The notes under the pieces: generated by a model | Database searches by the model: none | What the model was told of the DNA's origin: nothing | Seen by the model: the letters and a program-made list of their open reading frames with translations, nothing else | Part shown: positions 15,761-16,313 of the stretch, one piece after another | Layout of the letters: each line of letters starts with the position of its first letter | How positions within the stretch are numbered: position 1 is the stretch's first letter | Position numbers and translations under genes: made by a program | From: Campylobacteraceae bacterium | GTDB lineage: Bacteria > Campylobacterota > Campylobacteria > Campylobacterales > Sulfurospirillaceae | DNA: 56,051 nucleotides | NCBI GenBank assembly: GCA_026988975.1 | Contig: JALSKH010000095.1 | Coordinates: 1 to 56,051 of the forward strand | Reading direction: 5' to 3'

Positions 15761-16313
15761 ATGAAAAAGGTAGTAATTGCTTCGATAGCAACACTTGCTT
15801 TAGGTTCTAGTTTGTTTGCCACTGTGAACATAAGTACCTAACCAAAAGAAACACCAACTAATAGCAAAAAGAGAACGGTGCGAGTACAAGGCAGATTTTC
15901 GCAGGACTAGCAATAGCTAATTCAAGAAAATCTAACGAAGTAATCGTGCCGTTATCTTTTCGCCCGTAGGGAAGCTCAAAAAGAGCACATCTGACTTCGT
16001 TAAAAACTTTTGATGTACAATAAGTACACCTACAAGTTTTTGCCTTGCATATGCACTCTTTTTGAACTTCTATTAGTTGGTGTCTCTTTTGGCTAGGTAC
16101 TTAAATACATGTAAAGGTTGTCACGGTCAAAATTTTGAGAAAAGAGCACTAGGTAGAAGTGATGTCGTCAAAGATTTGACTAAGATGGATATCGCACGAC
16201 GACTCATAGAGTACAAAACAACCACAGAATCAGATGAGTTAGTTATGAAAGCACAAGTTGCCAGATATTCTGATGCAGAATTAAAAGCAGTAGCACAAAA
16301 GATAGGTAAATAA
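15761..16313 (+). pseudogene. c-type cytochrome gene interrupted by a 270-bp palindromic element
   Basis: 5' part encodes MKKVVIASIATLALGSSLFATVNI then stop inside the element; 3' part continues NTCKGCHGQNFEKRALGRSDVVKD...KIGK*. Removing 15833-16103 restores one frame. Confidence 0.85.
15831..16103. mobile_element. Palindromic element 1 (outer stem + two hairpins + CCCGTAGGG centre)
   Basis: Outer arms 15831-15864 / 16070-16103 (TAAGTACCTAACCAAAAGAAACACCAACTAATAG vs revcomp TAAGTACCTAGCCAAAAGAGACACCAACTAATAG); hairpin L ~15864-15962, centre 15963-15971, hairpin R ~15971-16069. Confidence 0.85.

What the first reader, a model, noticed from the sequence alone, without database searches (positions are those of the whole stretch)
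15761..16313. Element 1 splits a c-type cytochrome gene; removal restores the reading frame
The 5' fragment encodes a signal peptide (MKKVVIASIATLALGSSLFATVNI) and reaches a stop within the element. The 3' fragment resumes immediately after it with NTCKGCHGQNFEKRALGRSDVV. Deleting 15833-16103 yields MKKVVIASIATLALGSSLFATVNINTCKGCHGQNFEKRALG..., a plausible continuous periplasmic cytochrome. The element is flanked by TA (or TAA) on both sides. This is direct evidence that the element moves as a discrete unit and inserted relatively recently. It also raises the question of whether the gene is dead or whether excision/processing occurs.
Basis: partly seen in the sequence, partly recalled or inferred. 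Interest (0 to 1): 0.9.

Follow-up and report, generated by a model that had tools for sequence, protein, structure and literature searches.

The report
Hairpin mobile element splits cytochrome gene
A 269-base DNA element that encodes no protein has jumped into and broken a small cytochrome gene; it belongs to a widespread, apparently undescribed family of bacterial mini-elements whose folded hairpin shape is conserved in Campylobacterota, Clostridia and Gammaproteobacteria although most of its paired bases change freely.

Summary
A 269-bp element (15833-16101), flanked by duplicated TA, interrupts a 93-codon c-type cytochrome gene. Removing element plus one TA restores the frame; uninterrupted homologues exist in same-genus genomes. 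It is one of nine full-length copies in its genome (82-99% identical to it). Two sister elements in the window have TA insertions against empty syntenic sites in relatives, so the family moves as a unit. It is best called a miniature inverted-repeat element (MITE), but not a plain degenerate remnant: copies with different terminal repeats share one size (267-284 bp) and one four-armed fold. The inner ~97-nt hairpin shows compensatory changes in all 34 modelled pairs. The hairpin core also occurs in Clostridia and Gammaproteobacteria; in Clostridia it sits in a one-hairpin element of 158-179 bp. It is not in Rfam. In one complete genome no longer element shares its terminal repeats, and neither IS630-type nor IS200-type transposase genes track with it, so the mobilising enzyme is unknown. 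Nothing supports excision or splicing from the cytochrome gene, which is most likely dead.

The parts
15761..15832 (+). 5' fragment of the cytochrome gene: start codon, signal peptide, through codon 24
   Evidence: translation and joined ORF
15831..15832 (.). left TA, target duplication
   Evidence: frame restoration; TA duplication seen directly at sister elements
15833..15864 (+). left terminal inverted repeat, AGTACCTAACCAAAAGAAACACCAACTAATAG, outer stem
15865..15962 (+). hairpin A (alpha type, sense on + strand)
   Evidence: covariance model R1, 95.2 bits
15963..15971 (.). central mini-hairpin CCCGTAGGG
15972..16069 (-). hairpin B (alpha type, sense on - strand)
   Evidence: covariance model R1, 89.5 bits
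16070..16101 (-). right terminal inverted repeat
16102..16103 (.). right TA, target duplication
16104..16313 (+). 3' fragment of the cytochrome gene, NTCKGCHG... to the stop codon
17825..18094 (.). sister element E2 (terminal repeat AACTGACCTTACGCAC), upstream of rplU; empty site in G003, G004, G006
23016..23282 (.). sister element E3 (terminal repeat GTACCCCACC) between parA and parB; exact TA-duplicated empty site in G006
34687..34953 (.). sister element E4 (terminal repeat GGGCATATCTAATAATAG), same four-armed fold

Best explanation
The element is a non-autonomous, MITE-like transposable element that inserted at a TA in a cytochrome c gene and inactivated it. It consists only of two inverted ends, each a ~32-bp terminal repeat plus a ~97-nt imperfect hairpin, joined by a CCNNNGG mini-hairpin. 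Shown: copy number, TA duplication and empty sites for sister copies, uniform four-armed architecture, covariation of the inner hairpin. Inferred: a trans-acting enzyme reads the inner hairpin in folded form (extruded cruciform, or single strand at replication) together with the terminal repeat, and inserts the element at TA. Inferred: the gene is a fresh pseudogene with no precise removal at DNA, RNA or protein level.
For: Nine full-length copies in both orientations, 82-99% identical. Frame restored exactly by removing element plus one TA; homologues align over all 93 residues without stops. Empty sites: E3 in G006, GCCAGCTAATATG against GCTAGCTA[element]TAATATG; E2 in G003, G004, G006. 19 elements of 267-284 bp with at least eight terminal-repeat families share one fold. 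Covariation 31 of 34 pairs on a structure-free alignment, 34 of 34 on 70 hairpins against slid controls. G.T to A.C near-pairs 192:29 in the alpha sense. Copies lie mostly between genes.
Against: No enzyme has been linked: no longer element with the same terminal repeats in the own assembly or in complete G261, no IS630 DDE_3 gene in the own genome. The cytochrome locus has no syntenic empty site. Paired changes in palindromes can also arise by replication-linked self-correction, so recognition of the folded form is an inference.
Confidence: 0.9

Rival explanations
1. Programmed removal: the element is excised from DNA (like TA-bounded internal eliminated sequences of ciliates), spliced from mRNA, or bypassed by ribosomes, so the cytochrome is still made.
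For: Precise TA-bounded insertion, intact reading frame after removal, very stable fold of the element as RNA.
Against: No intron or ribozyme family match; 271 nt with an immediate stop; the other copies lie between genes, where removal would serve no purpose; weaker paralogues exist in the genome.
Confidence: 0.04
2. The element is primarily a structured RNA gene (or RNA-level regulator) that spreads, and the insertion in the cytochrome is a by-product.
For: Covarying hairpin with conserved internal loops and conserved wobble pairs.
Against: The same hairpin sits in both orientations in one element, so no single transcript carries two sense copies; of 14 Clostridia copies between same-direction genes, 11 have the alpha sense strand antisense to the genes; no promoter-like site was found at the element.
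Confidence: 0.1
3. IS630/Tc1-mariner-type MITE: an internally deleted IS630-family element, moved by a DDE transposase that makes TA duplications.
For: TA target duplication; terminal inverted repeats; a few copy-rich genomes do have DDE_3 genes.
Against: No DDE_3 match in the own genome or in copy-rich G003, G261, G257, G255, G170, G089, G052; no longer relative with the same ends; IS630 remnants are not expected to keep a covarying interior.
Confidence: 0.25
4. Assembly artefact: the repeat was misjoined into the cytochrome gene.
For: Fragmented assembly of 243 contigs; repeats are prone to misjoins.
Against: The two halves rejoin to the exact frame and homologue length, with a TA on both sides that a misjoin would not make.
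Confidence: 0.03

Closest known systems
Bacterial MITEs (review PMC10969869)
   Same: Short, non-coding, terminal inverted repeats, target duplication, many dispersed copies, mostly intergenic, stable stem-loop
   Different: Interior is a conserved, covarying fold shared across phyla although terminal repeats differ; no parent insertion sequence found
REP sequences and their dimers, with TnpA-REP/RAYT (PMC3733652, PMC8266576)
   Same: Imperfect hairpins with conserved bulges; inverted dimers, in some genomes inside a longer palindrome; no parent element needed; intergenic
   Different: No GTAG or CGTC tag; ~97-nt hairpin instead of 20-40 bp; ~32-bp terminal repeats; TA duplication; Y1 transposase absent from several copy-rich genomes
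Thiomargarita MITEs (PMC4853749)
   Same: MITE interrupts a metabolic gene in a sulfur bacterium; one family has TA-type ends and a large hairpin
Integron attC sites
   Same: Structure conserved more than sequence; recognised as a folded single strand (stated in PMC8266576)
   Different: No cassettes or integrase seen here; TA duplication and terminal repeats instead of site-specific recombination; integrase not searched for

Membership tests
MITE (descriptive class) | Short, non-coding, with terminal inverted repeats | tested here: met
   269 bp, ~32-bp repeats, stops in the frame entered
MITE (descriptive class) | Target-site duplication | tested here: met
   TA, seen against empty sites for E2 and E3; frame-based for E1
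MITE (descriptive class) | Multiple dispersed copies | tested here: met
   nine full-length copies of this family alone
MITE (descriptive class) | Shares ends with an autonomous insertion sequence | tested here: not met
   none in the own assembly or in complete G261; often not found for accepted MITEs either
IS630-derived MITE | TA target duplication | tested here: met
IS630-derived MITE | IS630 (DDE_3) transposase available in the genome | tested here: not met
   absent from own genome and from several copy-rich genomes
REP/BIME with RAYT | 20-40 bp palindrome tagged with GTAG or CGTC | tested here: not met
   ~97-nt hairpin inside ~32-bp terminal repeats, no such tag in the consensus
REP/BIME with RAYT | Y1 (HUH) transposase in the genome | tested here: not met
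   own genome has two, but none in copy-rich G170, G063, G052, G104, G255, and present in copy-free genomes
Group I/II intron or other known structured RNA | Match to the family's covariance model | tested here: not met
   no gathering-score match in the window; only chance-level matches at the element
Internal eliminated sequence (programmed excision) | Precise removal in the cell | not testable with these tools
   needs reads or cDNA

The most novel reading that the evidence does not exclude
The alpha hairpin is the signature of an undescribed class of miniature mobile DNA, present in at least Campylobacterota, Clostridia and Gammaproteobacteria, that moves as folded single-stranded DNA or an extruded cruciform by a trans-acting enzyme outside the IS630 and IS200/REP families, with the terminal repeats acting mainly as a variable structural stem.
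Probability: 0.35. Interest if true: 0.8.

Novelty: new variant of a known kind. Interest (0 to 1): 0.55.

Why it matters
As a gene interruption it is ordinary. As a family it is not: a non-coding mobile element whose interior fold, more than its sequence, is conserved from Campylobacterota to gut Clostridia, with no transposase yet attached, gives a concrete handle on whether bacterial miniature elements can be recognised as folded nucleic acid outside the known REP and integron systems. It also accounts for four otherwise puzzling palindromes in this window, and probably for some contig breaks in such genomes.

Tried and rejected
Rfam at gathering and permissive thresholds: nothing beyond chance. 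IS630 transposase as partner: absent from the own genome and not tracking. Y1/RAYT as partner: not tracking. Longer element bounded by the terminal repeats: sought in the own genome and in complete G261, none. Apparent 2-3 kb inverted repeats in Clostridia contigs (L156, L196) turned out to be separate nearby copies with unrelated genes between. Phage and IMG/VR collections: no match; plasmids: one weak partial match in Subdoligranulum. Syntenic empty site for the cytochrome gene: not available, because the neighbourhood differs in the relatives. Long joined ORFs at several other copies were adjacent genes, not split genes. Literature searches for Campylobacterota or Clostridia MITEs of this form found none; only open-access papers were searchable.

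Full report
Observation. The ORF from 15761 runs through a signal peptide into a TAA at 15839. The stretch 15831-16103 is a long near-palindrome bounded by TA on each side. Taking out 15833-16103 gives a 93-codon ORF with a CKGCH haem motif. Five uninterrupted homologues in three same-genus genomes align over all 93 residues without stops, at 60-67% identity. The insertion length of 271 is not a multiple of three, so the restored frame argues for exactly the element plus one TA. Neither half has another lesion, so the insertion looks recent. The Pfam match is below its cut-off; motif and homologues carry the assignment.

The element recurs. The same genome holds nine full-length copies including this one, the others 82-99% identical and in both orientations, plus fragments. 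Related copies occur in same-genus genomes and, at 82%, in a genome of another family. Of 21 copies examined with flanks joined, this is the only clear mid-gene case; others that gave long joined frames proved to lie between adjacent genes, several right at stop/start junctions.

It moves at TA. In the window, E3 between parA and parB has an exact empty site in G006: GCCAGCTAATATGTG against GCTAGCTA[GTACCCC...GGGGTAC]TAATATGTG. E2 upstream of rplU has near-exact empty sites in G003, G004 and G006; its right TA has become TC. Most copies of the family of the finding have TA on both sides. The cytochrome locus itself is not syntenic in relatives, so its own empty site is inferred.

Architecture. 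A search for outer inverted repeats in 411 kb of this genome gave 19 hits, against 0-2 in resampled sequence; 18 of them, plus E4, which that search missed, form one class. The contigs were chosen because they held hits, so the density must not be extrapolated. All 19 elements are 267-284 bp. They have at least eight different terminal-repeat families, yet fold the same way: a ~33-bp outer stem, a 94-101 nt hairpin A, a CCNNNGG mini-hairpin and a 94-98 nt hairpin B in inverted orientation (the automatic splitter failed on the elements with a two-pair mini-hairpin, but their folds show the same plan). The alpha hairpin has a basal stem of about 19 bp, a small mismatch, 2-3 pairs, an internal loop AAGGC/AACGNA, an 8-bp stem, a second internal loop GCA/AA and a capped stem. 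Some elements carry one alpha and one different (beta) hairpin.

Covariation. On a plain MAFFT alignment of 13 alpha hairpins, 31 of 34 pairs show compensatory double changes. On 70 distinct hairpins aligned by the model, all 34 do, and the covariation score is 0.912 against 0.12-0.19 for slid controls (that alignment leans to the model, the first does not). Among near-pairs, G.T outnumbers A.C 192 to 29 in the alpha orientation, 136 of the G.T falling in four columns where A.C is never seen. This points to a folded strand with a defined sense. Caveat: palindromes can be self-corrected during replication, which would create paired changes without selection; it would not explain the fixed loops and fixed wobble columns.

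Range. The covariance model finds full-length alpha hairpins in 41 of 299 Campylobacteria genomes and 19 of 58 genera (at most 13 candidates were scored per genome, so counts are floors). Copies from distant families are again about 266-282 bp. An exact core pattern with about 29 fixed bases hits 60 stretches in GTDB genomes: Campylobacterota, Clostridia (Oscillospiraceae and relatives) and Gammaproteobacteria; by my estimate chance would give essentially none. In Clostridia all 26 copies with a recognisable terminal repeat of expected span are a one-hairpin version of 158-179 bp, whereas 12 of 13 in Campylobacterota from that scan are the two-hairpin version. Terminal-repeat-only palindromes of about 55-61 bp look like deletion products.

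Mobilising enzyme. In complete genome G261 the F5 repeats pair up 270-271 bp apart at ten places, plus one 56-bp pair and one unpaired match; no longer element uses them. IS630-type DDE_3 genes are missing from the own genome and from several copy-rich genomes. Y1 transposases are missing from five copy-rich genomes and present in copy-free ones. Other transposase families were not tested. The enzyme is therefore unknown.

Mechanism. Most likely the element is mobilised in trans and inserts at TA; the inner hairpin is the recognition unit and is read in folded form (inferred). For the cytochrome gene the effect is inactivation (inferred from frame and stop). Nothing supports precise excision or splicing. 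A structured-RNA role is not excluded, but the hairpin occurs in both orientations in one element, and in Clostridia its sense strand tends to be antisense to flanking genes (11 of 14, small and non-independent sample).

Known relatives. It meets the descriptive definition of a MITE. It fails tested features of IS630-derived MITEs (no enzyme in the genome) and of REPs (no tag, wrong size, Y1 not required). REP dimers inside longer palindromes (PMC3733652) are the nearest published architecture, and recognition of bulged single-strand hairpins by TnpA-REP (PMC8266576) is the nearest published mechanism. I found no published description of this family, but only open-access papers could be searched.

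Noticed in passing
window 17825-18094, 23016-23282, 34687-34953: Three further elements of the same four-armed architecture with different terminal repeats; two have empty sites in relatives.
   Followed up: yes
L113:3017-3179 and L175:1065-1230: One-hairpin versions in Campylobacterota, like those of Clostridia; possibly deletion products or an ancestral form.
   Followed up: partly
L072 (G006:C34:45991-46052), L107:11331-11387, G261:C1:1844675-1844730: Short palindromes made only of the two terminal repeats, probably left by deletion of the interior.
   Followed up: partly
L146:2005-2205 (G206): An element whose two alpha hairpins lie in the same orientation instead of inverted.
   Followed up: no
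L101:5860-6136, L104:15254-15520, L103:8260-8540: Copies of one family (F4) sit exactly at stop/start junctions of adjacent co-directional genes and may supply stop and start codons.
   Followed up: partly
L143, L144, L145 (G104): Three copies with identical surroundings, apparently inside a repeated region of that genome.
   Followed up: no
L225 (G007), between parA and parB: A different, tandem repeat (GAGGAATTTTTTATGGGCTTTGCCC...) fills the parA-parB gap in this relative.
   Followed up: no
G004:C158:37-309, G004:C35:1-197, L167, L168 and similar: Many copies lie at contig ends, so these elements probably break short-read assemblies.
   Followed up: no
L156, L161, L185, L188, L207 and other Clostridia loci: Flanks of the Clostridia one-hairpin copies often show TA on one side only; their target duplication is not settled.
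   Followed up: partly
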